Positions 21,001 to 62,934 of a stretch of 64,000 nt of DNA are shown in pieces (positions within the stretch are counted from its first letter, which is position 1; every line of letters begins with the position of its first letter). Made by a program: the position numbers and the translations under genes. The notes beneath the pieces were generated by a model that had not been told where the DNA came from, did not search any database, and was given only the letters and a program-made list of their open reading frames with translations. This DNA comes from Pelagomonas calceolata (Eukaryota; Sar; Pelagophyceae; Pelagomonadales; Pelagomonadaceae), in the NCBI GenBank assembly GCA_918797485.1, contig CAKKNE010000004.1:5146001-5210000 (forward strand), in the 5' to 3' direction.

Positions 21001-22632
21001 TGCCGCCGCCGCGCGTCACGTTGAGCAGCTGGATCTCCTTCATCGTGCCCTCGCGGAGCACCTCGATTTTGGCCCGCGCGTCGACGCCGATGAGGTTGGC
21101 CGTCGAGGCGATCTCGAAGTCGAAGTCGTCGCCGAGGTCCTTCTCCCACGTGCGCTCGGCGTCGTCGAGGAACGACACGGTCCAGACGTAGCCGTTCTCG
21201 GGGTCCGGGCCGCTCCGCGAGACGGCCACCGTCCCCGCCGGCACGCCCGGCAGGCGCGTCAGGGCCTCGACGACGTCCTCGGCGGTCGCGTCGTGCTGGA
21301 TCACCGTCGTGCCGGGGTGCACGCCGTCGACGCCCGCGAAGCTCACGTTGAAGCTGCCGCTCAGCGTGTTGCCCGCGCGCACCTCGGAGGTCTCGACCCA
21401 GGGGTCGCCGCTCAGGCCCAGGAGCGTGCCCTCGTAGACGGGCGTCAGGAGCGGCTGGTCGCCGCCCTGGTCGTCGTGGACGAAGGTCACCCACCAGCTG
21501 AAGCCGCCGAAGGGCTGCGCGTCGCCCCGCACGACGGTCACGTCCGTGACCGTGTCCAGGAGCTCGAGCGCGTCCTCGACCTCGCCCGCGGTCGCGTCCG
21601 CGGCGATGAGCGCCGTCGTGTCGCCGCCGAAGGTCAGGCGGAAGGTGCCGCTGATGGCGTTGCCCTCCGTCTCCGTCGCCACCGTCACCGTCGAGCCGAG
21701 CGTCAGCCCCGACGCGTCGAGGACCTGGAGCTGCGGCAGGTCGGCGAGCGTCTCGTTGAACTGGATCTGCCACTGGAAGCCGGCGCGGCCGTCGATGGAG
21801 ACGTCCTCGCGCTTCACCTTGGTGACCATGCCGAGGCCCACGTTTTGCAGCGCCTCGACCATGGCGAGGACGGACGTCCGGCCGCAGCACGCCGCGGCCG
21901 ACGCGGGGATGGCGCCCGTGTACTGGAGCGTGCCGCCCGTCGGCCGCGTGTCCAGGGCCAGCGCGAAGGTGCCCGCCAGCGTCGAGCCGGCCGGCGCCGT
22001 CGCCGTCACCCACTGCTCCTCGCGGTGCGGCCGCGCGAGCGTCCGCACGAGCTGGATCTCGTCCACGTCCTTGCCTGTGTGGAAATCAAAATTTTACGGC
22101 GCGTTCGTGCTGAATCGTCGCGTCGTCCTCCACGCCATCGACGCGACGCCGACGCACTGGTTGATTTCCACACAGGTCCTTGCCGAAGGTGCGGATCGTC
22201 TGGAGCTCGTTCGCGCCCAGGTACGTGCTCGTCGTCACGGTCTGGACCTCGGCCACGCCGGGGTTCGTGTCCCATTCGACCTGGTAGCTCTGGACCTGTG
22301 TGGAAAGCAACCGGTGTTTCGGGCGCACCCGATAATTCTTCACGAAGTCATTTCGCGGCGATGATGCGGCCGCGCTGGCTCCGTCGAGCGGTGGGGAACC
22401 GACACCGCCACGCCATCGAGCAGGCGTCGCGTCGATGGCGTGGAGGTCGTAAAATTTTGCTTTCCACGCGGCTCCGGACGGCCGCGCCGCCGTCGCTCAG
22501 CGGCGGCGCCCAGGCCACCTCGACGCTGTCGCCGCCGACGATCTCCAGCAGCGCGTCCGTCGGCGCCGACGGCACGCGCAGCTCCGCGCGCGCCGCGGCA
22601 AATAATACGAGCAGCCCGCGGAGGGGCTGCAT
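1..22632 (-). CDS. Giant secreted/surface multidomain protein (FN3, PA14, filamin-like, ~30 beta-repeat modules), 3' end outside window
   Basis: Read on the minus strand in three exons: 22632-22480, 22295-22184, and 22074 running off the left edge. The last exon is open for over 22 kb, so the protein has at least 7,447 residues. It starts with a short signal peptide (MQPLRGLLVLFAAARA) and a fibronectin III domain (EVAWAPPLSDGGA, then YQVEWD). About 30 copies of a module of roughly 100 residues follow, with the pattern G-T-F-x-L-x-F-x-G-x-T-T, then A-L-E-x-L, then W-x-V-T-F and G-D-x-P-x-L. Three PA14 domains lie near residues 2857-3004, 4257-4431 and 5670-5821 (for example GQYFNNRWLYGD and VNDGARLFVDGEL). 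Filamin-like repeats follow them (for example VTTKDATGNK, then SGTYELSV), and more fibronectin III domains fill the last 2,000 residues. This architecture suggests a cell-surface or matrix adhesion protein; the exact role is unknown. Both introns are introners. No transmembrane segment was identified in the visible part. The large Arg-rich ORFs on the opposite strand and in other frames are shadows. Confidence 0.9.
22075..22175 (+). mobile_element. Introner (internally shortened, young), intron 2 of the giant FN3/PA14 gene
   Basis: This 101-bp element has a near-perfect CTGTGTGGAAATCAA terminal repeat at each end and perfect GTCCTTGC duplications (22067-22074 and 22176-22183). On the gene strand the intron is 22183 down to 22075, with a GC donor (GCAAGGAC) and CACACAG acceptor. 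Phase 1 splicing rebuilds a Gly codon, giving the join TF-GKD-VDEIQ. It lacks the middle of the ~200-bp family and lies antisense to the gene. The perfect duplication suggests recent insertion. Confidence 0.95.
22296..22471 (-). mobile_element. Introner, intron 1 of the giant FN3/PA14 gene
   Basis: This 176-bp element begins CTGTGTGGAAAGCAA and ends GCTTTCCACGCGG. Its flanks are CTCTGGAC (22288-22295) and CTCCGGAC (22472-22479), an 8-bp target duplication with one mismatch. In the gene's direction the intron is 22479 down to 22296: donor GTCCGG in the target copy, acceptor CACACAG in the terminal repeat. Splicing is phase 0 and joins A51 to the VQSYQVEWD strand of the first FN3 domain. The donor-side terminal repeat has lost its CAG; the acceptor-side repeat is intact. 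The element is sense to the gene by comparison with the ~200-bp copies. Confidence 0.93.
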
Positions 22633-23341
22633 TTTTTGGTGCCTACTCTTCGGGTATGTAAGCTTCGCTTTTTGGGCGCTTTAGGCCGTGGGGCGCGCTG
22701 CTCAGGAGTCGGTCTTCTCCTGCGCAGCGTGCGGCACGCCCTAAATCCAGCCTGGCTAGCCTGTGGCTGTCCCTGGAGCGCCTCTGCAGCACTACCTGCA
22801 CGCTCTTCGCTGCCCTGCGTCTCCCGGGCAGCAAAGAAGCGCGTACCACCCCGTTGCGACCGTGCAGCCGGCGCGGGTGTGGGTTTTTTGGCAGGTTATT
22901 GGTCGCTGCGCCCAGGTCTCTCCAGCGGACGGAAGAAAACCCCCTAGCCTTACAAAATATGAGCGCTCGCCCTCTTGCCAGAACGACCCCGCCACGCCGT
23001 GGCGCAGCGGTGCGGCGCCCGGGATCGCGCGCGCACTCGTCCGGGGCAGCCGGGCGCTTGCAGCCCCCCAAGACAATATGAAGGGCGCTTCCACGCGCGA
23101 GAGACGTCCCCGCATCAGCTTTGCCGCAGAGCGAGCCCTCGGCTGCGACGGCAGGTCGGGGTCGCGTCCAGCAGCGGCCCTCGTCGAGCCTCCAATCCGG
23201 CACGAGAGCGGCGCGGCTGCCAGCTCGCAGTCGTTTGGGAGGGCCAGGCCCCGTCCTCGGCAGCGCGCGCGTCGTCGACGCGAAAGGCAGCGTTTTGGGA
23301 GCAGGCTCACTGGAAGGCCTGGGCTCAGCCCTCGCTTCGGC
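22633..23341. other. Divergent intergenic/promoter region (giant gene / Tubby-like gene)
   Basis: This is 709 bp between two divergent start codons. ORFs cross it, but they carry no recognisable motif and read as random Arg/Pro-rich sequence. An ATG in frame with the Tubby-like gene at 23078 could lengthen that protein by 88 residues, but the added sequence looks non-coding. No clear TATA box or repeat was seen. Confidence 0.6.
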
Positions 23342-24356
23342 ATGGCGGCCCTCGCCCTGGCCGGCTTCAAGGCCGCGCCGCCCTCGAAGAGCCCCGTGGG
23401 CCCGATCGCCTTCGAGGACTTCGAGGCCCTCGAGGCCGGCCAGAGCCACGAGTTCGTGTCGCCCGCGCTGCTGACGCCGAGCCCCGTGCCGACACCGCGG
23501 CGACCGAACTGGGTGCCCTGCCGCGTGTCGCGGCCGCGCAAGGACCGCTTCGAGCTGCGGGCCGAGGACGGCGCGTTCATGCTCGGCGCGCGCGTCGTCG
23601 GCGGCGTCTGCTACGTGTCGACGGCCGAGGCCTTCGTCGCCAGCACGCGGCTCCCGCTCCCGCGGCCCTTCGCCGACGCGCAGGCCGCGGCGCGGGCCGC
23701 GCCGAAGAACGTCGTCGCCGTCGTCGCGCCGCGCGAGGGCCGGAACAAGGCGCCCGTCTTCGAGCTCGTCCTGGTCTCGGCGCAGCGCGGCCGGGCCGCG
23801 CGGCCGCTCTGCGAGGTGCGGCCCTCGAGCGTCTGGTGCGACCGCCAGGGCGCCGAGCTCCGGCGCCTCGCCATCGCGCTGCCCGAGTCCGCGCCGACGG
23901 CGCACTACACGCACGACTGGAACAGCCAGCCCGTCCGCGCCCGGCGTCCGCCTTCGGCCTTCAGCCTTCAGCCCGCGCGCCGGCCGGCGCGCGGAGGACG
24001 ACGCGACCCCCGCGCAGACGGCGGCCACGCGCGTCGCGCTCCACTCGAAGCTGCCCGTCTGGAACCGGCAGCTCGGCTGCCTGTCGCTCCACTTCGGCCG
24101 GAAGCGCGTGCGCGCGTCGTCCTCGAAAAACTTTCTCGTCTACACGGCGGAGGCGCTCCGGGACCCGAAGCGGCGCGACGACGCCGAGGCCGCCGTGTTC
24201 CAGCTCGGCAAGCTCGCGCCGAAGACGTTCGCGCTCGACTTCCGGCACCCCATGTCCGCGCTGCAGGCGTTCGGCGTCGCGCTCGCGGCCTTCCGCGTGA
24301 AGCACTCGCGCGGCGTGCCGCGCATCTCGCGCGCCGAGGCCGAGCCCTATAAGTAA
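23342..24356 (+). CDS. Tubby-like (TULP) C-terminal domain protein
   Basis: Exon 1 runs from ATG 23342 to 23932. Exon 2 starts at 23997 or 24018 (both phase 0) and ends at the TAA at 24356, giving about 309-316 aa. Exon 2 is a clear Tubby C-terminal barrel: VALHSKLPVWN, KNFLVYTAE, FQLGKLAPKTFALDFRHPMS, then ALQAFGVALAAF, matching the family's hallmark of a conserved LHN-PxWN strand and a final hydrophobic helix. Exon 1 carries the weaker first half (PCRVSRPRKDRFELRAEDG). Tubby domains bind phosphoinositides, and animal homologues deliver membrane proteins to cilia; a trafficking role here is inference. The intron is an ordinary GT-AG one with no introner hallmarks. The 3' end faces the next gene 21 bp away. 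The start is uncertain because longer in-frame ORF exists upstream. Confidence 0.85.
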
Positions 24357-24377
24357 CCTATCTGTTTTTGGTCTTAG

Positions 24378-24797
24378 TCACGGCCCCTTCACGACGTGCC
24401 GCGGCGGCAGCGACACGTGGGCCTCGCCGTCGACGGTCACGACGAGCTTGCCGTCGTCGAGCCACTCGTACGCGGAGAGCTCGTCGACGCAGGGCGCCAG
24501 CGTCAGCGCGCTCCCGTCCCGCCGCCAGCGGCCCGTCGCCGTCTGCGGCGGCGTCGCGACGCCCGGCACCGACCAGCGCAGCGTGTAGGACCCGGCGCTC
24601 GCGAGCGACAGCGTCACCTCGGCGAACGCGCGGCCGACGCGGCGCCAGTGGAGCTCGATGGCCGTCGGGCCCACGACGGGGCCGCGCGCGAACGTCTCGT
24701 CCGCCTGCCTCCGGAGCCGGTCGAGGACCGCGCCGCGCGCCTCGGCGCTCGCCGGCTCGATGTCGCTGTCGCTGTCGCTGTTGAAGAGGTCGGCCAT
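24378..24797 (-). CDS. Small hypothetical protein, probable beta-rich fold
   Basis: A single-exon 139-aa protein beginning MADLFNSDSDSDIEPAS. The acidic Ser-Asp start is followed by a short helix (LDRLRRQADETF) and alternating strands (AEVTLSLASAGSYTLRWSV, GRWRRDGSALTLAP, KLVVTVDGEAHVSLPP). That pattern resembles a small lipocalin-like or copper-binding-like barrel, but no family can be named. The reading frame has normal composition, unlike the Arg-rich shadow frames. It converges with the Tubby-like gene, with 21 bp between stop codons. Confidence 0.7.
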   Translation of the reverse strand: MADLFNSDSDSDIEPASAEARGAVLDRLRRQADETFARGPVVGPTAIELHWRRVGRAFAEVTLSLASAGSYTLRWSVPGVATPPQTATGRWRRDGSALTLAPCVDELSAYEWLDDGKLVVTVDGEAHVSLPPRHVVKGP

Positions 24798-25356
24798 CCT
24801 GGAAGGGCCGGAAGCTTCGCCTGCAAATGCAGCCCAGTTTTAGCTTAGCTTTTGGCCCTGCAGCCTAGCGTTCTCGTCAGGCTTTACTAGTGTGGGCTCG
24901 TCAGGTTGCCCGAACAGGCGTCTTTGCCGCGGAGGCAGCCCAAGTTCCCAAGTTGTGAGAAAGTGGACGGGTTTTCGTCTCTCGCGCCGCGCCGCATCTT
25001 TAAACGCCATCATTAATCGCACGTAGCAGCCAATGCCCGGCGGGCGGTGCCATCCCGATCGCTAATGGCTGCGTCCTCTTGAGGCAAGCGTCGCCAGCTT
25101 GCCCGCTTTTGAATTTATTCGTCCGGAGACGGCTCGCGCCGCGCCGCTGCGGGGCACGGGTGATCTCCAGGTGCCCTGTTTTTTAAAGTTGACATCCAGT
25201 CAGTCAGAGATCAATGTGAGTGTGTGATTGAAACTCTTGGGTTGTCTTGTCCGTGCACACACTCTGATCTAGAGAACTAGCATATATAAACGGCGCGATG
25301 CGATCCTAGCAGCCCGCCTCGTCCCTGCGAGGCGCGTGAGGGCCATCGCGACCTGC
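24798..25356. other. Intergenic region, divergent promoters; TATA box near right end
   Basis: This is 559 bp with lower GC than the neighbouring genes. A short open frame at 24840-25022 has no motif and is not supported as a gene. The right end holds TATATAAA at 25283-25290, 74 bp upstream of the next ATG. Confidence 0.6.
25283..25290 (+). promoter_or_regulatory. Candidate TATA box
   Basis: TATATAAA lies in a local AT-rich patch (ACTAGCATATATAAACGG), 74 bp before the ATG at 25357. The spacing fits a short 5' UTR. It is one of only two clear TATA boxes seen at gene starts in this window. Confidence 0.55.
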
Positions 25357-26931
25357 ATGGAAAGCTTCACCAATGAGGGTGCCGACAGGCACGCGGGCGC
25401 GCCGGGGCCAGCGCTGCCGCCAGACGCGGCCCACGAAGGAGGGGCTGCGGCTGGAAACGTCCCTGGGGCTGCCTCGGCTGCGGCGACGCACGAAGGAGGG
25501 GCAGCGGATGATCCTGCCGGCGCGGCGCCGCCCGCCGAGGCCGCGGATGTAGCACTACCGGGAACGCCAGCGGCAGCCGCGCCCTTGCTGGCAGCTCAAG
25601 AGATTCCGGCCGCCGCGCCGGCGGTGGAGGAATCGCAGCCGCGGACGAGGCGCCCGCGGCCGGACGACGGGCAGCGCGTCGGCACGTGGCGTACCGCGCG
25701 GCGCGACAATCAAATGTCGAGGACGCCGTCGACGCGCCGGGGTGCTCTTCATGTAGTACGCTGCTCGATTTGCGCGCAGGCACGGAAGAGCGCCAGTACG
25801 TGACCGAGGTCATCCTGAGGTTCGGCGAGGGGCGCCTCCCGAACGTGCCCGACAACACGTCGCTCCGCGTCCTCCTCTCGACGGTCCTGAACTGCAGTCC
25901 CATGCGCATCACACGGTGTGTAAATCAAACTTCCGTGCTGACTCATCGGTGGATTTGCGCTCAGGCATCACGAAGAAATTCTCGGGCAGGAACGCGCTCC
26001 CGCGCGGGCGCTACCGCCGCACCGCCGCGCCGGAGCCCGCGGCTGTGTGGAAATCAAATTTCGGGCGCCCCACGCCATCGACGCGACGTGCTTTCCGTAG
26101 CTGCGTCTGCGCGATGGCGTGGAGTTTTCAGGCCATGGACGCGACGTTGTCGCCCGTGACCGCGTCGGTTCGATGGCGTGGAGGTTCACGAAGTCCACGC
26201 AATATTTCTCAGGATAACCTAACTCACTGGTTGATTTCCACACAGGCCCGCGGCCCTCGAGCGGCTCCGGACGCTCGAGCGCGCGTTCCACCGGCGCGTC
26301 CGGGACGACGGCGCGAAGCTGACGACGAGCCTCTGCGGCACGTACGACCTGCCCACGCCGCAGTCCCTCGTCGACGCCACCACCACGGCGCAGGCGTCCG
26401 CCGGTCGCCGCTCGCCGACCGCGAAGCGCTCGCGCTCGCGCTCGCGGACGGCGTCCCCGGACCCTCCGCCGACGCTGATGGCTCCGGTCCCGTCGTCCTA
26501 CGGCGCGCCGGCCCTGGCGGGGCCCTACACCGGTCCGGAGCCCGCCTACGCCGGGGCCTGGCCGGCGCCGCCGGCGCCGCCGGAGCCCCATTCTCTCTCG
26601 ATCGCGGTCGCCGGCCTGCTGGACCCTGTGTGGAAATCAAATTTACGGCGCGTTCGTCCTGAATCGCCGCGTCGTCGTTCACGCCATCGACGCGACGCCT
26701 GCTCGATGGCGTGGCCATGTCGGTTCCTCACCGCTCGACGGAGCCAGCGCGGCCACGCCATCGCCGAGAAATGACTTCGTGAAGAATTGTCGGTGCACCC
26801 GAAACACCGGTTGATTTCCACACAGGCTGGACCTTGCGCCGGTCCCGGACGCCCCCGCCGCTTCGCGCCCGGTCTCTGCTGCTCCGGCCCCGGCCCCGGG
26901 CCCCGGCACCGGAGCCCCCTTCTCTCTCTGA
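25357..26931 (+). CDS. Nuclear-looking protein with a conserved PMRITKKFSG motif; four introner introns
   Basis: Exons 25357-25681, 25780-25905, 25965-26034, 26246-26617 and 26826-26931 join to exactly 333 codons (332 aa plus TGA). The N-terminus (about 105 aa) is Ala/Pro/Gly-rich and disordered. Residues about 108-175 form a compact block: RVGTEERQYVTEVILRFGEG, then TSLRVLLSTVLNCSPMRITK, then KFSGRNALPRGRYR. From memory, similar E-x-Y...LR-x-x-L-x-x-x-L-x-C-x-PMRISKKF blocks recur in uncharacterised stramenopile proteins; no named domain can be assigned. A basic helix (LERLRTLERAFHRRV), a Ser-Arg-rich stretch (KRSRSRSRTASPDPPP) and a Pro/Ala tail follow, suggesting a nuclear or RNA-linked role. 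All four introns have introner form and use GC donors. The block at 108-175 is only readable once the two eroded introners are removed, which supports the exon model. Confidence 0.8.
25690..25779. mobile_element. Eroded introner, intron 1 of the PMRITKKFSG gene
   Basis: The intron is 25682-25779 (98 nt), donor GCACGTGG, acceptor TTTGCGCGCAG. Only traces of the terminal repeats remain (ACAATCAAATG on the left, CTCGATTTGCGCGCAG on the right). The target copies GCACGTGG and GCACGGAA share the first five bases. Phase 1 splicing gives RVG-TEERQYVTE, linking two frames that are otherwise separate. Confidence 0.7.
25914..25964. mobile_element. Eroded short introner, intron 2 of the PMRITKKFSG gene
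   Basis: The intron is 25906-25964 (59 nt) with flanks GCATCACA and GCATCACG. Remnant ends read CGGTGTGTAAATCAAAC and GGTGGATTTGCGCTCAG. A GC donor and phase 1 give the conserved PMR-ITKK join. The alternative GT donor inside the element (GTGTGTAAAT) would shift the frame and break the motif. Confidence 0.75.
26043..26245 (+). mobile_element. Introner (young), intron 3 of the PMRITKKFSG gene
   Basis: A 203-bp element with intact terminal repeats and a perfect GCCCGCGG duplication (26035-26042, 26246-26253). The intron is 26035-26245 with GC donor and CACACAG acceptor, phase 2, restoring APEPAALERL. Internally it repeats the words CCATCGACGCGACG and GATGGCGTGGA more than once. Its left part (AAATTTCGGGCGCCCCACG) matches the copies at 28916 and 56931, so it belongs to that subfamily. 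Confidence 0.95.
26626..26825 (+). mobile_element. Introner (young, full-length type), intron 4 of the PMRITKKFSG gene
   Basis: A 200-bp element, close to the family consensus: left AAATTTACGGCGCGTTCG, right ATTGTCGGTGCACCCGAAAC before the terminal repeat. Target copies are perfect (GCTGGACC at 26618-26625 and 26826-26833). The intron is 26618-26825, GC donor, CACACAG acceptor, phase 2, giving AGL-LDLAPVP. It is sense to the gene. Confidence 0.95.
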
Positions 26932-28578: not shown

Positions 28579-30594
28579 TCATCCGCGCAAGAGCTTCCGG
28601 CGCTTCGTCTTCGACAGGTAGGCGCGCGCGAGCGCGGGCCGCGGGTTCGTGGCCAGCCGCACGCGAAAGAGGCAGTTCGCGGCGTCCGTGGGAACGGCCC
28701 GCACCTGTGCGGAAATCGATCCGTGAGCAAGCGTCGCGTCGATGGCGTGGAGGTTATGATGCAGCCGTATCCGAGAAGCGCCGCGTAATTTGATTTCTAC
28801 ACCCACTCGCACCAGCGAGTCCGACCTGAGGCGCACAACGACCTTGCGCTTCGCCACGCGCGCCCGGAGCAAGGGCGGTCCGAGCCAGGGCACGCCCGGC
28901 GCCCGGAGCAAGGACCTGTGTGGAAATCAAATTTCGGACGCCCCACGCCATCGACGCGACGTCGTCTCGATGGTTTAATTTCCACACAGGCAAAGACCGC
29001 AGCGCGTCGTCGTCGCCCGCGCCGTCGTCGTCGTCGTCGGACTCGTTCGAGAGCGCGGGGAGGACCTTGGCCCGCAGGATCGAGAGCGTCTTGTCGGGAA
29101 TGTCGGCGCGGAACACCGACAGCGCCGCCGCCAGCGCCAGCGCCAGCGGCCGGTCCGGCGCGCCGCCCTCCGACGCGTAGCCGATCGCGAGGAGCAGGCA
29201 CTCGCGGAAGGCCGTCGCGCCGCCGGGCGCCATGACGTCGCCGTACATGCACGTGTGCACGAGCTCCAGGGCGTGGCGCCGCGAGAGGCGCCGCCGCGAG
29301 ACGGGCGGCGGCGGCGCGTCGTCGACGGCCGAGAGGGGCCGCGCCATCATGTACGACACCTCGTCGACGCGCCGCGTCCAGTGGCGGTACGCGAGCTGCG
29401 GCACGTCCGCGCGGTCGCGGAAGCGCGACACGGCGCCGACGCGGACGAACCCGACCTTTTCGTAGAACTTCACGGCGTCCTTCGTCGCGTGGAGCACGGC
29501 GTGCGCGTGGCGGTCGTTCGCGGCGCAGTCCGCCAGCGCCTTGTCCAGCAGGCGGCGCCCGCAGCCCAGCGCGCCGAGCACGGCGACCTCGGCGAGCTTC
29601 GGCCAGACGCTGATGGCGTCGCCGTACTCCTTGTCGCGCGGCTCGCGCGTGTCGCAGGGGCCCGTCGCCTCCAGGGCGCGCGCGACGGCGCCCGAGTCGT
29701 CCACCTTGCGCAGCGTCCGGGCCTCCATCGACGACCGGTGGCAGCCGGCGGCGCCGTCGGCGACCTCGGCGGCCGACGCGTTCCGCGGCGGCCACGCGGC
29801 GCGGCGCCGCGCGACGCGCTCGTGCGGCAGGACGTCGAACGTGCCGGCGAGCGCGGCCGGGTGCGTCGACGTCCAGCGCAGCGACTTGGAGAAGGTGCAG
29901 AAGTCGCAGATGAGCACGAAGCCCTGCATGCGCCGCCGCTCGCCGCGCTCGCGCGCGACGTAGCCCTCGGGCGGCGAGGGGGCGAGGACGATGCGCTCCG
30001 CGACGTAGTCCGCCGAGAGGGGCGGCTCCAGGATCTGCTCCCAGGGCTTCAGGAGCCGCTTCGCGGCCTCGAAGCAGACGGCGACCATCTCCGGCACGAG
30101 CGCGCGCCACTCGTCGTGGCCGACGACGCGCTCGACGGTCGTGCCCGCCGCGAAGTCCGCGTCCGTGGCGCCCGCGCGCGGGATGCTGGGCATGTCGTAG
30201 GGCGCGTCCTTGTCGACGGGCGCGTGCGCCGGGCCCTCCGGGTCGCCGCCGTTCGGCGCCGCCGCCGCGCCCTGCTTGGCCCAGTTGTCGGGATGGCCGC
30301 CTGTGTGGAAATCAAAATTTTACGACGCGTTCGATTCAGCACATCGTCGTCCTCCACGCCATCGACGCGACGCCTGCTCGATGGCGTGGCGATGCCGATT
30401 CCTCGCCGCTCGACGGAACCAGCGCGGCCACGCCATCGCTGAGAAATGACTTAGTGAAGAATTGTCGGGTGCACCTGATGCACTGGTTGATTTCCACACA
30501 GTCGGCCGCGGTACTCGCCGGCGCCGTCGCCGGCGAAGGCGCCGGGCTCGACCTGCGCCGCCTCGCGCTGCGGGCGGTCGTCGGAGACGCCCAT
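28579..30594 (-). CDS. GNAT-family N-acetyltransferase-like protein with three introner introns
   Basis: Exons 30594-30510, 30300-28998, 28915-28813 and 28704-28579 join in frame to 539 codons (538 aa). The start is ATG 30594 (MGVSDDRPQ). After a disordered N-terminus, a GNAT fold occupies residues about 60-330: the N-terminal part EWRALVPEMVAVCFEAAKRL, a beta-strand MQGFVLICDFC, then the acetyl-CoA part EVAVLGALGCGRRLLDKAL and the typical end HATKDAVKFYEKVGFVRVG. The usual R/Q-x-x-G-x-G/A loop reads GALGCGRRLL. A helical region and an acidic patch (NESDDDDDGAGDDD) follow, then a basic C-terminus (KTKRRKLLRG). The substrate is unknown. Two of the four exon joins lie in the C-terminal 85 residues. 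It converges with the type II membrane protein gene. Confidence 0.85.
28705..28804 (-). mobile_element. Introner (aged), intron 3 of the GNAT gene
   Basis: A 100-bp element; the intron is 28812 down to 28705. The donor copy is GTGCGAGT and the exonic copy GTGCGGGC. The acceptor-side terminal repeat still gives CCGCACAG, while the donor-side end has changed to CTACACCC. Phase 0 splicing joins RSDSL to VRAVPTDAANC. Sense orientation is judged from AAATCAAATTACGCGG at the donor end. Confidence 0.88.
28916..28989 (+). mobile_element. Short introner, intron 2 of the GNAT gene
   Basis: At 74 bp this is among the shortest, with intact terminal repeats. The intron is 28997 down to 28916, donor GTCTTTGC, exonic copy GTCCTTGC, acceptor CACACAG, phase 2 (ALR-SLLRAPG). 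The left part matches the subfamily AAATTTCGGACGCCCCACG. It is antisense to the gene. Confidence 0.92.
30301..30501 (+). mobile_element. Introner (full-length type), intron 1 of the GNAT gene
   Basis: A 201-bp element with intact terminal repeats, antisense to the gene. The intron is 30509 down to 30301. The donor copy is GCGGCCGA (GC donor) and the exonic copy GCGGCCAT, differing at the last two bases. Phase 1 splicing gives EY-RGHPDNWAK. Confidence 0.92.
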
Positions 30595-32698: not shown

Positions 32699-35600
32699 AT
32701 GGGCCAATTCGCCTGCGAGTGCACCGCCACGGGCAGTGGCCGGGACCAGTGCGACTGGACCGACCTCTACGTTGCCCAGTTCAAGCTCCTGGACGGCTCG
32801 GTTGTGTACGTCGGCGGCTGTGTGGAAATCACGGCGCGTTCGTGCTGAATCATCGCGTGATTCGCGTGGTCCTTCACACCATCGACGCGACGCCCGCTCG
32901 ATGGCGTGGCGATGCCGGTTCCTCACCGCTCGACCGAGCCAGGACGGCCGCGTCATCGCCGAGAAATGACTTAGTGAAGAATTGTCGGGTGCACCCGACG
33001 CACCGGTTGATTTCCACACAGGTCGGCGGCGAATACGACACGTACGGCCGGATCACCTGCGCCGTCGAGGGCGGCGGCTCGGCGCAATTCACAATCGTCG
33101 ACGGCGCGGGCGGCGAGGACGCGCAGACATTCCTGACCGGTACTTACCAGTACGGCTACTACAACACCTATTCCCCGCGCGGCGACTACCCTGACGGCGG
33201 GATCGGTTGCGGCGTCCGCGCCGACGACGAATACGTCGAGGGCGTCCGCCTCAGCATCCCCGCGGACGCGCGAGACAAGCTCCAGGCCGTCGTTCCGGCC
33301 GCGATCGCAGCCAAGCTCGACCTCGACGTAGAAGGCGGCACCAGCTACATGCCGCACTTCCGCAAGGCGACGCTCGGCCGCCAAAAGACTATTCGGCGCC
33401 TCGAAGCCTACATGCGCATGGACGCGGCGGTCGCGGCAGGCGACCGGGCGGCCTTTGAGGTCGCCCAGCGCGAGATTCTCGCGGACCTGGCGCACGTGGC
33501 GGGCTCTCCGCCGTGGAGTTTTGTGTCGTGGTACGACGACACGACGGCGCGGCGCCAGGGCCACGACCTCTTCGACGAGGTGCGCAAGCTCGACGCGGCG
33601 GCGACGCCCGAGGCCTTCCAGCTCAAACGCCACGGAGACTGCATCGGTTGGGACCGCGCCGCGCTCGGGCGGGCCCTACGCGGCGAGCCGCCGGCCACGG
33701 GCCGGTCTCCGCACCCGGGACGGCCTCCTGCGGCCACGAGCAGCCGCCCCTCCCTGACGGTCGTTACCGACCGCGTGCTACTAGAGGTCGTGCCGTTCTC
33801 CACGATCGACGACGCGAACAGTTTCAACACGGCTCTGTCGGGCCGGCTCCGGAGGATCGGTCCCGCGTTCGACCGGTACCTCGAGAATGACCGGCGGAAG
33901 GCCTTCGGCACGACCAAAGCCGACGCCGACGCGCGCTTCGCGGCGCGCCTCGCGGAAGGCGCGTGCGGCTGCTGCGGCCGCGAGGACGGCCTGCTCGTTC
34001 TGTGCGACGGCTGCGAGACCGGCGCCGCGCACCCGGCCTGCGTCTCGCCTCCCCTCAACGAGAAGAAGCTGCCGGACGAGTGGTTCTGCCCCGCGTGCGG
34101 CGGCGCGCCCTTCACGACGAACGGGACGCAGCAGATCCTCGACGCCATCGACGACGCGGACGCGTCGGTCCTGCAGGACCTGCTCGCGCGCGGCGTTCGC
34201 GGAAACTCGTCCGCGGTTCTCCGCCACGCGCTGGGTTTGGTCAATGCGCCCGATGTGGTTCGCATGCTCCTCGTCGCGGGTGCGGACCCGGACGTGCCGG
34301 AAACGATCGAGAAGAAACAAGGGTGGCACGCGAACCCGATCATTAAGATCGAGGCGACGCCGCTCTTCGAAGCGCTGAAGGAGAAGAACGCGGCGTTGGC
34401 GCTCGCGCTCGTCGCGGGCGGCGCTTCCGTGGACAAGCACATCAGCGTCCAATTGGACTACAACGTGTCCACGGGCTCGCTGTACGGCTACCGCGAGCCG
34501 CCCTTCACGCGCCGATGCGCCACGACGTGTCTGTTTGAGGCCGTGTGCACCATGCCGCCCGAGGTGAACGACGCCGACGACTTCGAGGCTCTGGAGGTCC
34601 TCGTCGACACCATTCTGCGTTCGGCCAGTAACCCGAGGGCGCTCGTCCGGCACTCGGTGCAGGCCTGGGCTCACCTTCACGGCGCCTCTGGACGCGGCCG
34701 CGCCTTCGATAACGAGGGCGACACCGCCCTACTAGCCGCCGTGCAGCGACCGAGCGAACGTATTGTTAAGGCTCTCGTCAAAGCGGGTGCGCGCGTCAAG
34801 GAACTCACGCCCACGGGCTGCTCGATCCTCAGCATCTGCCGCATGGCCTACGGGCCGCTCCTCATGGCCGCGGGCGCGCCCATCAGAGTCCCCGGGAAGC
34901 CGAGCATCCTTTCGCGGGTCGTCACGGCAAGCAGCGACCGGAAGGAACGCGGTTGGTACTCTGGAGGCACCGAGAGCGAGGCGTGGCGCCGCGAGCGGCG
35001 CGCGTTTTTCGACGCTCTCCTACAAGCGCGGCCGGCCGACGTGCACACTCAAGATTCGGAAAAAGGCGAGACGGTGTTGCATCGGCTCCTGAAGCAGGGC
35101 AGCCAGCAGGCCCTGGACGTCGCGAGCCGCGACAACGGTCGCGACCGCTACTATTACAGCAGCTACTCGGGCCCTCGCGATCCTGCGGGGATCTTCTCGA
35201 TGGTGGAGGCGTGCGTCGCGGCCGGTGGCAACCTCAACCAGGCATCTGCCGACGGGGCGACGCCCTTCCTCCAGGCGGTGGCGTGGATGGACGAGGAGCG
35301 CATCTCCGCTCTTCTTAGCCTGGGCGCGGACGCGACGGTCGTCGACTCGCGCGGGCGCGGCGCGCTCCACTACGCCGTCGCGCGAGCTCAAACGGAGGTC
35401 AGCGGTTACGGTCGCGACGAAGACGAGAAGGCGACCAAGCTGGGGGCGTTGTTCCGAACGCTACTCGCGGCCGGGGCCGACCCCAAGCAGACCGGGCTTC
35501 TGAAACTCGACTGGTGCGGAAAGCATGCTATAATCGAACGCGTCACGCCGCTGGTCGCCATCGTCGCCCTCGGAGAGAACATACTGCCGTCCGAGAAAGG

Positions 35601-36018
35601 GTACGACAGCCCGAAAAAATGGAAGGTCGTGTCCGAGGTCGTGCGCGCGCTCTTCGCCGTGTCGGACCTGACCGCGCAGTTGCGCGACGAGAACCTGCTG
35701 ACGCTGTGCGTCTCGTGGGCGCCCATCGAGTTCGTGCTCCAGTTGTTGGACGGTGCCGAGCTGAACCTCGACCAGACTGGAACGGACGGCGACACGCCGC
35801 TCATCCGCGCCTTGAAGCTGCCCGACGACGGCGACACGAAAGCTGAGAAGTACGGGGCCGCGAAGTCGGCGCTGGTCGAGCTCTTGTTGGCGCGCGGCGC
35901 GGGGCCGAACGTGTGCGACGACGAGGGCCATTCGCCCCTCTACCACGCGGGCTACCAGAAGCGCATGGGCGACGTCATCCGCAAGGCCGGCGGGTACCGG
36001 TCCAACATCGAGACGTGA
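32699..36018 (+). CDS. PHD-finger and ankyrin-repeat protein
   Basis: Exon 1 is 32699-32809 (37 codons from ATG, MGQFACECTATGSG); exon 2 is 33022-36018; total 1,035 aa. Residues about 350-400 are a PHD-type zinc finger with a C4HC3 ligand set (CGCCGREDGLLVLCDGC, HPACVSPPL, WFCPACGG), a fold that usually reads histone tails. From about residue 410 to the end, ankyrin-like repeats follow (DALLARG, VRMLLVAGADPDVP, TALLAAVQRPSERIVKALVK, ISALLSLGADATVVDSRGRG, LVELLLARGAGPNVCDDEGH). The first 340 residues hold no recognised domain. A chromatin or nuclear scaffold role is inferred. The single intron is an introner with a perfect target duplication. GC at third positions is somewhat lower than in the methyltransferase genes to the right. 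Confidence 0.9.
32818..33021 (+). mobile_element. Introner (young, full-length type) in the PHD-ankyrin gene
   Basis: A 204-bp element with perfect GTCGGCGG duplications (32810-32817, 33022-33029). The intron is 32810-33021, GT donor, CACACAG acceptor, phase 0, restoring VVYVGGEYDTY. It is sense to the gene. The right half (GAAGAATTGTCGGGTGCACC) is nearly identical to the copies at 30301 and 61961. Confidence 0.96.
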
Positions 36019-43796: not shown

Positions 43797-45356
43797 ATGG
43801 AAGCTGGTACCCGACGACGGTGGCTCCTCGCCGCCGTCACCATCGCTCGGGCAGCCGCCAAGTCCCACGACGACGGCGGCTTCCCGCCCTGCCGCTGGCC
43901 GCCCTGGCCGGACCGGCCCGGCTACTGCGCCCCGCCGGCGAACAGCTGGAACAACGAGCACACGCGGGTCCGGCCCGGCACCTGCGACCCGCGCAAGCCG
44001 TCGTGCAAGGTCGGCTCGGGAAGAAGGCCCATCGTCGACCCGAAGGACCCGTGGAAGAAGGCGGTGCCGCCCGGCTTCCGGAAGCCGCTCATCGTGACGG
44101 GCGCGGACGCCCTCGGGCCCGTCGTGCGCGAGGTCTTCCTGCCGCTCTTTCTCGGGCTGCTCTTCCTCTTCCACGTCATCGGCCCCTTCACGCTCCTCCA
44201 GAAGATCAAGTCGAAGTGCAACGACCTGCGGGGCAAGGCCCCGGGCGTGAAGAAGGAGGACCACCTGGCCAAGGGCGCGCTCGTCCAGTTCAAGACGGTG
44301 CTCAGCCAGCGCAAGTGGAGCCCGGTCCTCCTGATCGGCCCGCTGCCGCCGAGCTTGATTGGCTGGCTGGTCATGACCGTCGGCCAGATCTACTTCTTTG
44401 CCACCTACGAGATGAGCTCGCGAAATAAATGCTACCCGGTCAAACTGGGGCTGCTCGTGGCCATCTGCGTGTCGCACCTGTTCGTGGGCACGTTCTTCTG
44501 GTCCTACGCCGGCTACCGCTACGACATCGCGTTCCGGCCTGTGTGGAATTATTGCGCGGATCTTCGTGAACCTCCACGCCATCGAGCAGAGACTGTGCCG
44601 GGGACAACGTCGCATCGATGGCGTACGGTGGGGTCTGAAATTTGATTTCCACACAGGTTCCGGCTCAACGCGAAGTTCTGGCGGTCGTGGCGGTACAAGA
44701 AGATCTCGATCAACGTGACGCGCGAGTACCCGTCGCTCGGGCATCTCGTGGCGCACTACGTTGACCTCTACCTGTTGACGCTGGGGGCGAACGGCTACTT
44801 CTCGATGCAGCTCATGGCCGAGCATGAGAAGGGCCCCTGCGAGAAGTACGGCCTCCTCTCGTTCAGCTGGTTCGTCGTCCTCATGACGTGGTTCGTGCTC
44901 GGCTGCGTCACGTACGAAGTCGTCAAATTGACCGCGAGCTCGTACGGCATCGGCACGTACGGGAACCCCGAGGAGGAGACGCGCGAGTCGCTGCAGAAGA
45001 AGCGTGCCGACCGCCTGGCGCAGGGCGGCGAGGCGTCCGACAGCGAGGAGGACGAGAACCACTGGAGCAAGTGGCCCATCGAGGACCAGCCCGAGGCCGA
45101 GGAGTCGCTCGGCTACCAGGCGGTGCGGAACCAATTCGTGCAATTCGGCGATATGGACAACATCGAGGCCGATCAACTCGTAGAGGTGCTCAAGTACCTG
45201 CGGCTCCGCCTCGAGGTCCCTGAACTGGAGGCGCTCAAGGAGGACCTGGCCATCGACGAGCTGATCACCTTCGACATGTTCTTCGCGTGGTACGAGGAGT
45301 ACTACGAGAAAAAGAAATATCCCAACGGCAGGTATCCTGGAGACGAGGAAACGTAA
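43797..45356 (+). CDS. Multi-span membrane protein with acidic, EF-hand-like C-terminus
   Basis: Exons 43797-44530 and 44657-45356 give 477 aa. The N-terminus (MEAGTRRRWLLAAVTIARAA) is a likely signal peptide. A Cys/Pro/Trp-rich region follows (PPCRWPPWPDRPGYCAPP, TCDPRKPSCKVG), probably lumenal or extracellular. Membrane spans are seen at EVFLPLFLGLLFLFHVIGPF, VLLIGPLPPSLIGWLVMTVG, LGLLVAICVSHLFVGTFFWS, LVAHYVDLYLLTLGANGY and YGLLSFSWFVVLMTWFVLGC. The cytosolic tail is acidic (ASDSEEDENHWSKW) and includes FGDMDNIEADQLVEVLKYLR, an EF-hand-like loop-helix lacking a full ligand set. The family is not recognised; a channel or transporter is possible. It converges with the LRR/EF-hand gene, 15 bp between stops. 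Confidence 0.85.
44539..44656 (-). mobile_element. Introner (young) in the membrane protein gene
   Basis: A 118-bp element with perfect GTTCCGGC duplications (44531-44538, 44657-44664). The left terminal repeat is shortened (CTGTGTGGAATTATT); the right is intact (TTTGATTTCCACACAG). The intron is 44531-44656, GT donor, phase 2, restoring YDIAFRLNAKF. By its inner sequence it belongs to the AAATTTC...CCATCG subfamily and lies antisense to the gene. Confidence 0.95.
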
Positions 45357-56147: not shown

Positions 56148-57639
56148 CTAGGAAAACCACAAATCCCGCCGCTTCAGCAACGCGTCCCAGTCGATCTCGT
56201 CGGTAATAGCGACGCGCCTCGAGCCGCGCACCCAGACGTTGAGGGCGAGGCGCCTCCCTTTCACATCAAAAGCCGGGTGCGCGTCGCAGCGCCACACGTC
56301 GGTGGGCATCGTGCCGAAAGCGGCCACAGGAAAGACGCCAAGCCACGCCTCCCGATCACCGCCAGAAAGGACGCGCAACGCCGCCTCGCCCGCCTCGAGG
56401 CCGAAGGCCGCGTGTTCCTTCGCATAGGTATCCGTCACGACAAGGTCGCCGCGGCCGGGAACGCCGACGGGGTGCCCCGAGGCCCGCTCCGAGAGCACCT
56501 GGCACGACCCGCCCTCGACGTCGTCGAACGCGCAGACCTTGCCTTCGTAGTTCATCGACAGCCGCCCGTCCTCGAGCCAGTTCGGGTGGTTCCCGTCGCG
56601 GAGCCACGTCGCGACGACGCGCACGTCCGCGCCGTCCGGGTTCACCGTCAGCGCGTGGTTCGCGTCGCCCCGGGGACACCCTTGCCCGCGGGCGCGCACG
56701 ACGACCAGGAGCCGCGTCCCCTTTGCGTTCCACTTCACGTGGAAGACGTGCCGGTGGCACTCGGCTCCTTTTCGCGCGTCGCCGCCGGCGACGGCGCGAG
56801 GCCGCGAATCCAGCTCGGCGGCGGCGACGAGGGCGCTGAGCTCGAGGAAGGCCGTGGCGTTCGTCCTCAGGTCGAGGACGTGGACGCCGTCCTTCTGACT
56901 TTCTAGATGGCGGAGCTGTTCGGGCGTGACCTGTGTGGAATCAAATTTTGGGCGCCCCACGCCATCGACGCGAGGTTGCCTCCATTCCTGCGTCTGCTCG
57001 ATAGCGTAACCCAAATCACTGTTTGATTTCCACACGGGGTGTGACGACGACGCCGTAGCCATCTTGCGTCATTCTTAGTGCCGCCAGGTCCCGCGGCGCG
57101 GCCGCCCGGGCGCCGTCTCGGGTCACGTGGTAGACGGGCGTCGGCAGCCTCGTTTCCCTCCCGCGCTGCCAGTCGCTGCGGACGCCCCGGACGATGGGCG
57201 CGCCGTCGCCGCGCGTCCCGACGACGTCGTTGAAGTAGAGCTCGTCGTCGGACGCGCCCCACTGGACTTGCGCGCCGAGCTGCGCGTCCCAGGCAGCCGT
57301 CGGCCGCCGGTACGCGACCGGAAAGCGGTCCTTGCGCTTCTTCTGGAGGTCGTAGACGACGACCTCCGCCACGTCGCCCGGCGTTACGTCCGCGGGGCCC
57401 TCGCGGCGCGTCCGCGTCGCGCAGACGTAGCGGCCCGACGGCGAGATGGCGCTGGAGTCGAAGAAGCGGTGCGTCGTGCGCGCGCCGCCGACGACCTGCC
57501 ACCGGACGTCGTAGGTCGACCGCGGCCGCTTGATCGTCGCGGCGCCCCACCGCGGCGCCACGACCCAGACCGTCGCCCAGAGAATGACCAGCAGCGGCGT
57601 GAATTTTATGCCGCGCTTCAGCAGGGACTGCTGCGGCAT
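56148..57639 (-). CDS. Membrane-anchored beta-propeller protein (TolB/PD40-like)
   Basis: Exons 57639-57046 and 56930-56148 give 458 aa. The N-terminus (MPQQSLLKRGIKFTPLLVIL then WATVWVVAP) is a signal anchor. The rest is strand-rich with propeller blades: SAISPSGRYVCATRTRR, EVVVYDLQKKRKDRFP, VQWGASDDELYFNDVVG, FHVKWNAKGTRLLVVVRAR, NHPNWLEDGRLSMNYEG, AHPAFDVKGRRLALNVW. Blades of the form H-P-x-F/W...D-G-R/K occur in TolB-like and oligogalacturonate-lyase-like propellers, and the central HPNWLEDGRLS is close to the latter. A catalytic role cannot be shown. The intron is an introner. A GCTAG motif lies upstream. Confidence 0.85.
56931..57037 (+). mobile_element. Introner in the beta-propeller gene
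   Basis: A 107-bp element. The intron is 57045 down to 56931, donor GTCACACC, exonic copy GTCACGCC, acceptor CACACAG, phase 0, joining YGV to VTPEQLRHLE. The donor-side end has changed to CCACACGG; the acceptor side is intact apart from one missing A just inside (TGGAATCAAA). It is of the AAATTTTGGGCGCCCCACG subfamily and antisense to the gene. Confidence 0.93.
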
Positions 57640-57781: not shown

Positions 57782-57805
57782 GCTAGCGATTGTAAGATAC
57801 TAGCT
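57782..57805 (-). promoter_or_regulatory. GCTAG upstream motif, copy 3 (variant)
   Basis: On the minus strand: AGCTAGTATCTTACAATCGC then TAGC. It differs from the other copies at a few inner positions. It points toward the beta-propeller gene start, 142 bp away, and lies 21 bp beyond the 3' end of the next gene. Confidence 0.45.
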
Positions 57806-57826
57806 GCACTAAGCCTTGGATGATAC

Positions 57827-60111: not shown

Positions 60112-60523
60112 TCCTGGTTTTCCGTTCGCTCTTCTTCCTGTGCCGTTTCGTTCGCCTTTGGTGCTACCTGAGCGTTGCCTGCCCGGGCGCGGGCGCGAAA
60201 AAAAAAATTCCTCTCCGTAAACCTGGATTTCCGTCTGATTCGTAATAAGCCTATGTGCACTACGTCGACAAGAGACTACAAGCCTGCGGTGTGCACCCAT
60301 GGTCGCAGAGGAGGCTCATCTCCAGCGCCGCGCTCTGCGAGCACAGCTGCCCCTCATACACGCCGAGGCACACCGAAACGGCAGCCGCACCGCGCTGAGA
60401 ACAACCAAGGGGTCATCCGTCGTCGGTGCGGCGGCTGCCCAGACTACTTGGCCGAGGAGCTGAGAGCCACATACACTTGGCTGGGAGAGCCACATACACT
60501 TGGCTGGGAGAGCCACAGGACAA
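60112..60523. other. Intergenic region ending in a 23-bp tandem repeat
   Basis: A 412-bp region with a 10-base A-run at about 60199-60208 just beyond the zinc-ribbon gene and no supported ORF. The repeat at 60463-60517 sits immediately upstream of the next start codon. Confidence 0.6.
60463..60517 (+). repeat. 23-bp tandem repeat in the 5' leader of the SHIPPO-like gene
   Basis: Two perfect units (AGAGCCACATACACTTGGCT plus GGG) at 60463-60485 and 60486-60508, then a 9-bp partial third unit. The array ends 6 bp before the ATG at 60524, so a change in copy number would alter leader length only. Confidence 0.9.
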
Positions 60524-61591: not shown

Positions 61592-61952
61592 GACCAATTG
61601 TTACGGTGCTAGAACTAGTGGGCGGAGCCCCTGGGGGGGAGACACCGCTCGTCGCCGACTCATCGGCGTGCCGGATGTTTGCTAGTGTCTTACAGGCCGC
61701 TAGCTCAACTATGTGGGCGGGCGCAAGTTTGGAGTCTAGATCGCGTTCGCCGGCCGTGTTTGGTTCTCGGACCTTGGCTGTGTGCTCGTCTGGACGCCCG
61801 GCACTGTCCGGCTCTCAAGGCTTGGCGAGAGAGGCCGAAGAATTAAGTGAAAAGCGACGATTGCAAGCTGGCGGATCACGAGGAAGGACGCGCGGCGTCG
61901 TCGCTCTGCCCGCGGAGCCTCGCGCAGCTCACGGACATCCCTTTCTTCTTTA
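61592..61952. other. Intergenic region with GCTAG motif copy 5, possible 5' exon of the next gene
   Basis: A 361-bp region. The last ~110 bp are open in frame with the next gene (DCKLADHEEGRAASSL, CPRSLAQLTDIPFFFSMD) but no ATG lies in that frame before an upstream TAA. It may be coding only if an undetected upstream exon exists. Confidence 0.5.
61679..61704 (+). promoter_or_regulatory. GCTAG upstream motif, copy 5
   Basis: TTGCTAGTGTCTTACAGGCC then GCTAGC. It is on the same strand as the small membrane-protein gene whose first introner starts 250 bp downstream. Confidence 0.5.
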
Positions 61953-61960
61953 GCATGGAC

Positions 61961-62163
61961 CTGTGTGGAAATCAAGCAGTGCGTCGGGTGCGCCCGACAA
62001 TTCTTCACTAAGTCATTCCTCGGCGACGACCCGGCCGTCCTAGCTCGGTCGAGCGGTGAGGAACCGGCATCGCCACGCCGTTGAGCAGGCGTCGCGTCGA
62101 TGGCGTGCAGGTCGACGCGACGATTCAACACGAACGCGCCGTAAAATTTTGATTTCCGCACAG
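61961..62163 (-). mobile_element. Introner (young, full-length type) at the start codon of a small membrane-protein gene
   Basis: A 203-bp element with perfect GCATGGAC duplications (61953-61960, 62164-62171). The intron is 61953-62163, GC donor, acceptor CCGCACAG. It is antisense to the gene. The duplicated target contains ATG, so the candidate start codon exists on both sides of the element. Confidence 0.92.
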
Positions 62164-62165
62164 GC

Positions 62166-62934
62166 ATGGACGAGGAGACCTCGGACGCGACGATCCAGTC
62201 CGAGAGCCCCGGGCCGCGGGCGCCGGCGGACAGAGGTCCCATTTTAAACAGCGCGCGCGCCTGCTGTCTCCCCGACTGTCGGGCGGCGGACGTCGCGGTC
62301 GTCGCCTTCTGGCTCGTGTCTGTGTGGAAATCAAATTTACGGCGCTTTCCTCCTGAATCGACGCGTCGACCTTCACGCCATCAACGCGACTGCTCGATGG
62401 CGTGGCGGTGTCGGTTCCCCACCGCTCGACGGAGCCAGCGCGGCCACGTCATCGCCGAGAAATGACTTATGTGTCGATATCGCCCTCGCCTCGAACCTGG
62501 CGCTCGCAAACAGCGCCTACATACCCTACGCCGTCCCGACGACGTTCGTCGTCGTCGTGAGCTGCGTGACGGCCCTCTGGTTGCTAGTGCGGGTCTTCAC
62601 ACGGGGCAGCCGCGCCATCTCGACCACGGGAGCGACCTACTTGGATCTGCACCTCTTTTGCGTCTACATCGCGGGCGTCGCGCTCGTGATCGCAATCGTG
62701 TTGGGTCTCACGCTCGGGCCCGACAAGGCGCGCAAAGTTTCGCGACGTTACGACGACGAGGGCGCCGGCGACGACGAGCGCGTCTTTCGCGAGGGCGCGT
62801 ACGTTCGCTGCGGGCTCCTCGCGTTGGTCCTCGCGGTCTTCGGCCTCGGCGTCCGGCTTCGTAGGGTCGCCGGCGCGCCCACGACGCGCCGGCTCGTGTC
62901 GAGGTCCATCGAACTCACGTCGCACGCGAGTTAG
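62166..62934 (+). CDS. Small membrane protein, interrupted by a truncated introner
   Basis: The first part starts at ATG 62166 (MDEETSDATIQSESPGPRAP) and reaches the span ADVAVVAFWLVS at about 62320. The second part reads from about 62470 to the TAG at 62934: DIALASNLALANSAYIPYAV, TTFVVVVSCVTALWLLVRVF, LFCVYIAGVALVIAIVLGLT and CGLLALVLAVFGLGVRL, giving about four membrane spans. The two parts are in different frames and the normal introner acceptor between them is missing. One in-frame solution is donor GTCTGT at 62318 with acceptor CGCCGAG ending 62459 (142 nt), giving FWLV-NDLCVDIALA. Other solutions, or an inactive gene, remain possible. The family is not recognised. Confidence 0.6.
62320..62469 (+). 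mobile_element. 3'-truncated introner
   Basis: It begins with an intact CTGTGTGGAAATCAAATTTA and follows the full-length copies up to GAGAAATGACTTA, then stops. About 50 bp, including the acceptor terminal repeat, is missing. The left target copy is GCTCGTGT (62312-62319). The sequence after the break, TGTGTCGATATC, fits the last three bases of that copy followed by the original exon, so a deletion removed the right end plus five target bases. Confidence 0.85.

What the first reader, a model, noticed from the sequence alone, without database searches (positions are those of the whole stretch)
22075..62469. Fourteen introner-type intron-generating transposons in one 64-kb window
Fourteen introns share terminal repeats related to CTGTGTGGAAATCAA and sit in 8-bp target duplications. 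Removing one target copy plus the element restores an open, sensible protein in all cases that can be tested (13 of 14). Every intron seen in the window except one (Tubby-like gene) is of this kind. This matches the introners described for Aureococcus and shows recent mass intron gain.
Basis: partly seen in the sequence, partly recalled or inferred. Interest (0 to 1): 0.92.

Follow-up and report, generated by a model that had tools for sequence, protein, structure and literature searches.

The report
Introners: transposons that become introns
Small mobile DNA elements have inserted into algal-type protein genes and are probably removed from the message as introns; this looks like a clear example of introners, a way of gaining introns already described for Aureococcus and other plankton.

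Summary
The terminal repeat CTGTGTGGAAATCAA has 24 matches at up to 3 mismatches, against 0.22 expected; 23 lie in the listed elements. Thirteen paired elements sit in 8-bp direct repeats (92 of 104 positions match, shuffled mean 43). A fourteenth (62320) has lost its right end. Removing one repeat plus the element gives open genes at 12 of 12 testable elements; for 11 of 12 retention changes or cuts the protein, but E7 alone could stay in frame.

Mechanism: a non-autonomous DNA transposon. Each terminus, read outward, ends CAG, so either orientation supplies a 3' splice site (6 sense, 6 antisense of 12 orientable). The 5' site is the start of the duplicated target, GT or GC in 13 of 13 on the coding strand (p = 3e-10). 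At E2, fn3 paralogues in the same protein support exact removal.

This matches published introners, including the ~210-bp length reported for Aureococcus. No whole genome, RNA or transposase was available, and the species is not proven. 'Recent' fits only some copies. Already known; a clear worked example, with about half GC donors.

The parts
22075..22183 (-). E1: element 22075-22175 plus target copy; intron 109 nt in giant gene A; GC donor (GCAAGGAC), CAG acceptor; antisense to gene
   Evidence: TIR 0/0 mismatches, TSD 8/8; retention cuts the protein to 120 aa
22296..22479 (-). E2: element 22296-22471 plus target copy; intron 184 nt in gene A inside an fn3-like domain; GT donor; sense
   Evidence: TSD 7/8; spliced product matches fn3-like paralogues without a gap at the junction
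25691..25779 (+). E3: divergent short element 25699-25779 plus upstream target copy; intron about 89 nt in gene C; left boundary uncertain
   Evidence: TIR 5 and 4 mismatches, TSD 4/8; retention cuts the protein to 148 aa
25906..25964 (+). E4: short element 25914-25964 plus target copy; intron 59 nt in gene C; GC donor
   Evidence: TSD 7/8, TIR 2 and 4 mismatches; retention gives 221 aa
26035..26245 (+). E5: element 26043-26245 plus target copy; intron 211 nt in gene C; GC donor; subtype B, sense
   Evidence: TIR 0/0, TSD 8/8; retention gives a longer frame with a different C-terminus
26618..26825 (+). E6: element 26626-26825 plus target copy; intron 208 nt in gene C; GC donor; subtype A, sense
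   Evidence: TIR 0/0, TSD 8/8; retention changes the C-terminus; fails the blind GC3 frame test
28705..28812 (-). E7: element 28705-28804 plus target copy; intron 108 nt in gene D; GT donor; sense; could also be translated through
   Evidence: TIR 3 and 2 mismatches, TSD 6/8; retention keeps the frame, 574 aa
28916..28997 (-). E8: element 28916-28989 plus target copy; intron 82 nt in gene D; GT donor; subtype B, antisense
   Evidence: TSD 7/8; retention changes the C-terminus
30301..30509 (-). E9: element 30301-30501 plus target copy; intron 209 nt in gene D; GC donor; subtype A, antisense
   Evidence: TIR 0/0, TSD 6/8; retention cuts the protein to 47 aa
32810..33021 (+). E10: element 32818-33021 plus target copy; intron 212 nt in gene E (PHD and ankyrin protein); GT donor; subtype A, sense
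   Evidence: TSD 8/8; gene domains; retention cuts to 49 aa
44531..44656 (+). E11: element 44539-44656 plus target copy; intron 126 nt in gene F; GT donor; subtype B, antisense
   Evidence: TSD 8/8; retention stops at 282 aa
56931..57045 (-). E12: element 56931-57037 plus target copy; intron 115 nt in gene G; GT donor; subtype B, antisense
   Evidence: TSD 7/8; retention stops at 207 aa
61953..62163 (+). E13: element 61961-62163 plus target copy; 211 nt at the start codon of gene H (target GCATGGAC contains ATG); GC donor; subtype A, antisense
   Evidence: TIR 0 and 1 mismatch, TSD 8/8; frame cannot test it
62312..62468 (+). E14: 3'-truncated copy in gene H; left terminus intact, right terminus and second target copy missing; acceptor unresolved
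1..22632 (-). Gene A: at least 7446 aa after removal of E1 and E2, runs off the window; weak fn3 match at its start (E 0.00033, below Pfam's cut-off)
25357..26931 (+). Gene C: 335 aa after removal of E3-E6; no Pfam family
28579..30594 (-). Gene D: 538 aa GNAT-domain protein after removal of E7-E9
32699..36018 (+). Gene E: 1035 aa PHD and ankyrin-repeat protein after removal of E10
43797..45356 (+). Gene F: 477 aa after removal of E11; no Pfam family
56148..57639 (-). Gene G: 458 aa after removal of E12; no Pfam family above its cut-off
62166..62932 (+). Gene H: starts in the second target copy of E13 and holds E14; end read from the open frame downstream of E14

Best explanation
These are introners: copies of a non-autonomous, MITE-like DNA transposon with about 15-bp inverted termini and 8-bp target duplications, inserted into exons. 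Shown here: termini, target duplications, open genes after excision, and both orientations. Inferred: each copy is removed by the spliceosome from the first base of the upstream target copy (GT or GC) to the CAG at the end of the element, so the second target copy restores the original exon exactly. Each terminus read outward (TTGATTTCCACACAG) ends in CAG, so a 3' splice site is present in either orientation; the TTGAT could serve as a branch site (my reading, not tested). The transposase is presumably supplied by an autonomous relative elsewhere in the genome (not seen).
For: TIR enrichment. TSD agreement 92/104 against a shuffled mean of 43. Six of six testable genes open when all their elements are removed (A 7446, C 335, D 538, E 1035, F 477, G 458 aa) and stop at 94, 148, 47, 49, 282 and 207 aa if all are retained; retained singly, 8 of 12 shorten the protein and 3 of 12 change its C-terminus. 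The target copy begins with GY on the coding strand in 13 of 13 (background 0.184, p = 2.8e-10), while its other end is RC in 4 (donor copy) or 5 (acceptor copy) of 13 (Fisher p = 0.0016 with the 5), so the bias follows the gene strand. Orientation against the gene is 6 sense to 6 antisense of 12 orientable copies (my tally from the aligned directions and gene strands). The acceptor-side end is CAG in 13 of 13, the donor-side end in 8 of 13 (Fisher p = 0.039). At E2 the exact splice aligns to eight stretches of the same protein without a gap at the junction; with 12 nt more, two of the eight drop out and the other six score lower.
Against: No RNA evidence. E7 could be translated through in frame, and E5, E6 and E8 if retained give longer frames, so frame speaks firmly for only 8 of 12. 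The blind GC3 frame test fails E6 at every flank length and E10 and E9 at longer flanks. E3 and E14 lack clean ends. Over all 15 bases the acceptor and donor termini differ little in decay (15 against 20 mismatches). Six of 13 donors are GC with no consensus beyond GY, unusual for spliceosomal 5' sites. No transposase or second genomic region could be examined; pattern scans of viral and prokaryotic collections found no inverted pair. The tests were made after seeing the elements.
Confidence: 0.92

Rival explanations
1. The elements carry both splice sites: splicing starts at the GT at position 5 of the terminus (CTGT|GTGGAA), so each insertion adds 12 nt (8 target + 4 element), that is four amino acids, as reported for one Aureococcus sp. 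family.
For: All six genes stay open under this model too (A 7454, C 351, D 550, E 1039, F 481, G 462 aa). Position 5-6 is GT in 12 of 13 and GC in 1 of 13. Such a family is published (Fig. 2F legend).
Against: It does not require the target to start with GY, yet 13 of 13 do (p = 2.8e-10). Even if only the six GC cases used it, the chance of six GC starts is below 0.184^6, about 4e-5 (my bound). At E2 it inserts four residues (VRSR) in an fn3-like loop that the paralogues lack; the best score falls from 55.5 to 52.0 bits with a 4-residue gap.
Confidence: 0.06
2. The elements are MITEs that interrupt pseudogenes or unexpressed genes and are not spliced at all.
For: No RNA was available; retained copies stop all six testable genes early. 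E7 needs no splicing to keep its frame.
Against: Flanking exons keep high third-position GC. GY at the target start and CAG at the acceptor-side end are found in 13 of 13, which I cannot explain without splicing.
Confidence: 0.03
3. They are non-spliceosomal or structure-guided introns: the inverted termini pair in RNA and bring the ends together, as proposed for Amoebophrya introners and known for euglenids (the latter recalled).
For: Four of five folded introns form the terminal stem, with energies 2.4 to 5.8 sd below shuffles (the E1 stretch was given one base short at its 3' end).
Against: Any TIR element folds so. E4 has lost the stem (z = 0.01). The donor-side end has changed in 5 of 13 while the acceptor end is CAG in 13 of 13, and the GY...AG rule points to the spliceosome.
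Confidence: 0.03

Closest known systems
Introner elements of Aureococcus anophagefferens (Huff, Zilberman and Roy 2016, Nature; not held, so known here only through passages in PMC9481584, PMC7789003 and PMC9860276 and from recall)
   Same: TIRs and direct repeats of constant length (passage); typical intron length about 210 bp (passage); five introns here are 208-212 nt
   Different: Those are summarised as having canonical splicing motifs (passage); here 6 of 13 paired donors are GC. Their terminal sequence could not be compared; a text search for TGTGTGGAAATC with 'intron' found one unrelated paper.
Aureococcus sp. MAG introner family 4 (Gozashti et al. 2022, PMC9860276; results section read, passages)
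   Same: 8-bp target duplication, carries the acceptor
   Different: That family carries both splice sites and adds 12 nt to the message; here the evidence favours a donor from the target copy and nothing added.
Symbiodinium microadriaticum introners (Gozashti et al. 2022, Fig. 2B legend)
   Same: Same splice-site plan: TIRs, element-carried 3' site, 5' site taken from the target duplication
   Different: 4-bp instead of 8-bp target duplication.
Amoebophrya introners (PMC7789003, passages)
   Same: Inverted repeats that can pair in RNA, direct repeats at the borders
   Different: Those have 3-5-nt direct repeats and highly variable splice motifs; here GY...CAG holds in 13 of 13.
Candidate introners of mirusviruses (PMC12768974, passages)
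   Same: Groups of similar introns in one genome
   Different: Viral; that paper found no match between mirusvirus introns and eukaryotic introners. No virus family was hit among the proteins scanned with Pfam here.

Membership tests
Introner (intron-generating transposable element) | Several introns with near end-to-end sequence similarity at unrelated positions | tested here: met
   Seven type A copies 84-93% identical pairwise over aligned bases; a second subtype E5, E8, E11, E12; 7 genes
Introner (intron-generating transposable element) | Similarity ends at or near the splice borders | tested here: met
   A recognisable terminus directly precedes the second target copy in 13 of 14, E3 being weak
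Introner (intron-generating transposable element) | Sequence is spliced from mRNA | not testable with these tools
   No RNA; only indirect evidence
DNA-transposon-type introner with 8-bp TSD | Terminal inverted repeats | tested here: met
   11 clear pairs, 2 divergent pairs (E3, E4), 1 with one end only (E14)
DNA-transposon-type introner with 8-bp TSD | 8-bp target site duplication | tested here: met
   92/104 positions over 13 copies; 8/8 in 6 of 13; absent in E14
DNA-transposon-type introner with 8-bp TSD | Mobilised by a transposase with the same termini | not tested
   No genome held; no transposase family among the proteins scanned. Not scanned: gene A beyond its first 400 of 7446 aa, gene H, and a short open frame near 24379-24800
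Aureococcus anophagefferens introner family | Intron length near 210 bp | tested here: met
   Five of 13 introns are 208, 209, 211, 211 and 212 nt (E6, E9, E5, E13, E10); the other eight are 59-184 nt
Aureococcus anophagefferens introner family | Canonical splice motifs (as summarised in PMC7789003) | tested here: inconclusive
   Acceptor CAG 13 of 13; donors 7 GT and 6 GC; splicing itself not seen
Aureococcus anophagefferens introner family | Same terminal sequence and same species | not testable with these tools
   Huff et al. not held; organism not named
Aureococcus sp. family 4 (12-nt adding) | Element carries both splice sites and adds 12 nt | tested here: inconclusive
   Frames stay open under it, but the GY rule and the fn3 alignment at E2 speak against it; no RNA

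The most novel reading that the evidence does not exclude
In this genome a 5' splice site need only be GY exactly 8 nt before the transposon terminus: donors are about half GC, without any shared downstream bases, so the terminus (or its pairing with the other end) may define the donor by distance rather than by U1 complementarity.
Probability: 0.12. Interest if true: 0.65.

Novelty: already known. Interest (0 to 1): 0.3.

Why it matters
It is a dense, readable example of how new introns arise: the target copy appears to become the 5' splice site and the transposon end the 3' splice site in either orientation, with a trace of selection on just those bases. It agrees with the published view and gives a ready set of junctions for an RNA test, but does not change that view.

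Tried and rejected
Copies elsewhere: the 15-mer has 43 single hits in viral contigs, which I judge to be about chance (the size of the collection in bases is recalled, not from a call). A 19-mer has two hits in genome contigs, both bacterial by title. An internal 18-mer has 15 hits in viral contigs. The 60 loci held from these scans were checked at up to 2 mismatches for a second terminus; one (L024) had two hits, on the same strand, and none had an inverted pair.

Non-coding RNA: no Rfam family at gathering score.

Excess of insertions in genes: not claimed, because nearly all of the window is genic by my ORF models.

E14 splice site: eight donor-acceptor pairs keep a frame over 200 aa, so none is chosen.

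Transposase superfamily from termini and 8-bp TSD: I could not assign one.

E1 exactness from the spacing of EVQ-like motifs in gene A: too few motifs (spacing 13 at E1; 2 of 5 short spacings are 13, E1 itself being one of the two).

Full report
What is there. The window is 64-83% G+C in 2-kb steps and carries eukaryotic genes (Sec1 family, Tub, SET, PHD and ankyrin, a weak fn3). The sequence CTGTGTGGAAATCAA has 24 matches with up to 3 mismatches, where 0.22 are expected. Pairing forward and inverted matches, with flanks compared by script, gives elements E1-E13, and a left end without partner gives E14. They lie in 7 of 22 gene models that I drew from open frames and third-position GC: gene A two, C four, D three, E, F and G one each, H two. 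Of the other 15, 14 are single open frames and one is the Tubby-like gene; a short frame near 24379-24800 was not modelled.

Target duplications. Across 13 paired elements 92 of 104 positions of the flanking octamers agree; with partners shuffled the mean is 43.1 and the maximum 70 in 20,000 trials. Six are perfect, four have one difference, two have two, and E3 has four. E14 has no second copy.

Gene test. Removing the upstream target copy plus the element for E1-E12 gives six open frames from ATG, five of them complete and gene A running off the window; leaving all elements in stops each early. Kept one at a time, with the other elements of the gene removed, 8 of 12 shorten the protein, 3 of 12 (E5, E6, E8) give a longer frame with another C-terminus, and E7 stays in frame with the same C-terminus (574 against 538 aa). 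So frame is firm for eight, weaker for three and silent for E7. A blind version that picks the coding frame of each flank from stops and GC3 keeps the frame in 11 of 12 with flanks of 45-110 nt, 10 of 12 at 120 and 9 of 12 at 150; E6 fails at all eight lengths tried, E10 and E9 only at longer ones (first run, 10 of 12). For E10, and for E6 at the longer lengths, the flank runs past the start or end of the coding part, which is my reading of the coordinates; it does not excuse E6 at short lengths. E13 has ATG inside its target copy, so frame says nothing. E14 cannot be resolved.

How it is spliced. On the coding strand the target copy begins with G and then C or T in 13 of 13 (7 GT, 6 GC), against 0.184 for GY in the coding strand of these genes (p = 2.8e-10); the other end of the octamer is RC in 4 (donor copy) or 5 (acceptor copy) of 13, so the bias is not a symmetrical target preference. 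Dropping the weak E3 leaves 12 of 12. Aligned directions and gene strands give 6 copies in each orientation among the 12 that can be oriented (E3 and E4 left out, E14 included), so the bias follows the gene and not the element. The terminus on the acceptor side ends in CAG in 13 of 13; the same three bases on the donor side survive in 8 of 13 (Fisher p = 0.039). This is what one expects if splicing protects the acceptor end while the donor-side end is free to decay after insertion. Over the full 15 bases the difference is small (15 against 20 mismatches). These tests were chosen after seeing the elements.

Which donor. A GT at position 5 of the terminus would also keep all six genes open, adding 12 nt each, as published for one Aureococcus sp. 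family. The GY rule speaks against it, and so does gene A. E2 interrupts an fn3-like domain (Pfam fn3 E 0.00033, below the curated cut-off), and eight stretches of the same giant protein match it at E < 1e-3. With exact removal none of the eight alignments has a gap at the junction. With the 12-nt longer exon two of the eight drop out, the other six score lower, and five of those six need a 4-residue gap there. This is one site only.

Age and subtypes. Two subtypes share termini but differ inside: A (E1, E2, E6, E9, E10, E13, E14, probably E7) and B (E5, E8, E11, E12); E3 and E4 are divergent. Seven type A copies are 84-93% identical pairwise over aligned bases (21 pairs). With 7 of 13 target pairs already different this looks like insertions of different ages and not one fresh burst.

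RNA stem. Four of five tested introns fold into the terminal stem, 2.4 to 5.8 sd better than shuffles, but E4 does not. So the stem may be a by-product of the termini and is not shown to be needed.

Comparison with what is known. Gozashti et al. 2022 (PMC9860276; abstract, whole results section and one methods section read, other passages) describe 548 introner families, among them ones that carry the 3' site and take the 5' site from the target copy, and GC donors at 0 to 50%. The Pelagomonas paper (PMC9481584, passages) gives about 210 bp as the characteristic length of Aureococcus anophagefferens introners; five introns here are 208-212 nt and eight are shorter. Huff et al. 2016 is not held, so the terminal sequence could not be compared and the species is not proven. 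I therefore file it as a known kind, very likely the described Aureococcus elements or those of a close relative.

Limits. No genome, no RNA, no transposase. A search of the papers held for TGTGTGGAAATC with 'intron' found one unrelated paper, which says little, as such sequences are often only in figures or supplements.

Noticed in passing
27235 (+), 58799 (-), 61681 (+), 63059 (+): A motif like CTTGCTAGTGTCTTACAGC(C)GCTAGC occurs four times (at up to 3 mismatches; none in 100 shuffles; pattern written after seeing the copies), each between my gene models and in the same direction as the next gene downstream; perhaps a promoter element.
   Followed up: partly
1-22632 (-): Giant gene of at least 7446 aa that runs off the window, with degenerate repeats and fn3-like stretches; the only introns seen in it are two introners near its 5' end.
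   Followed up: partly
61953-62173: E13 duplicated a start codon: its target copy GCATGGAC contains the ATG of gene H, so the unspliced message would offer a first ATG that reads into the element.
   Followed up: partly
23940-24020: Tubby-like gene changes frame here; I saw no introner ends in the apparent intron. A sequencing error is not excluded.
   Followed up: partly
52001-56000: Stretch of 80-83% G+C within a 1539-aa open frame with a weak leucine-rich-repeat match.
   Followed up: no
62312-62468: E14 lost its 3' end; the downstream gene frame continues, so it may now use a new acceptor and add element-derived residues.
   Followed up: partly
28705-28812: E7 (108 nt, no in-frame stop) could be kept in the message and add 36 residues to gene D without breaking it.
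   Followed up: partly
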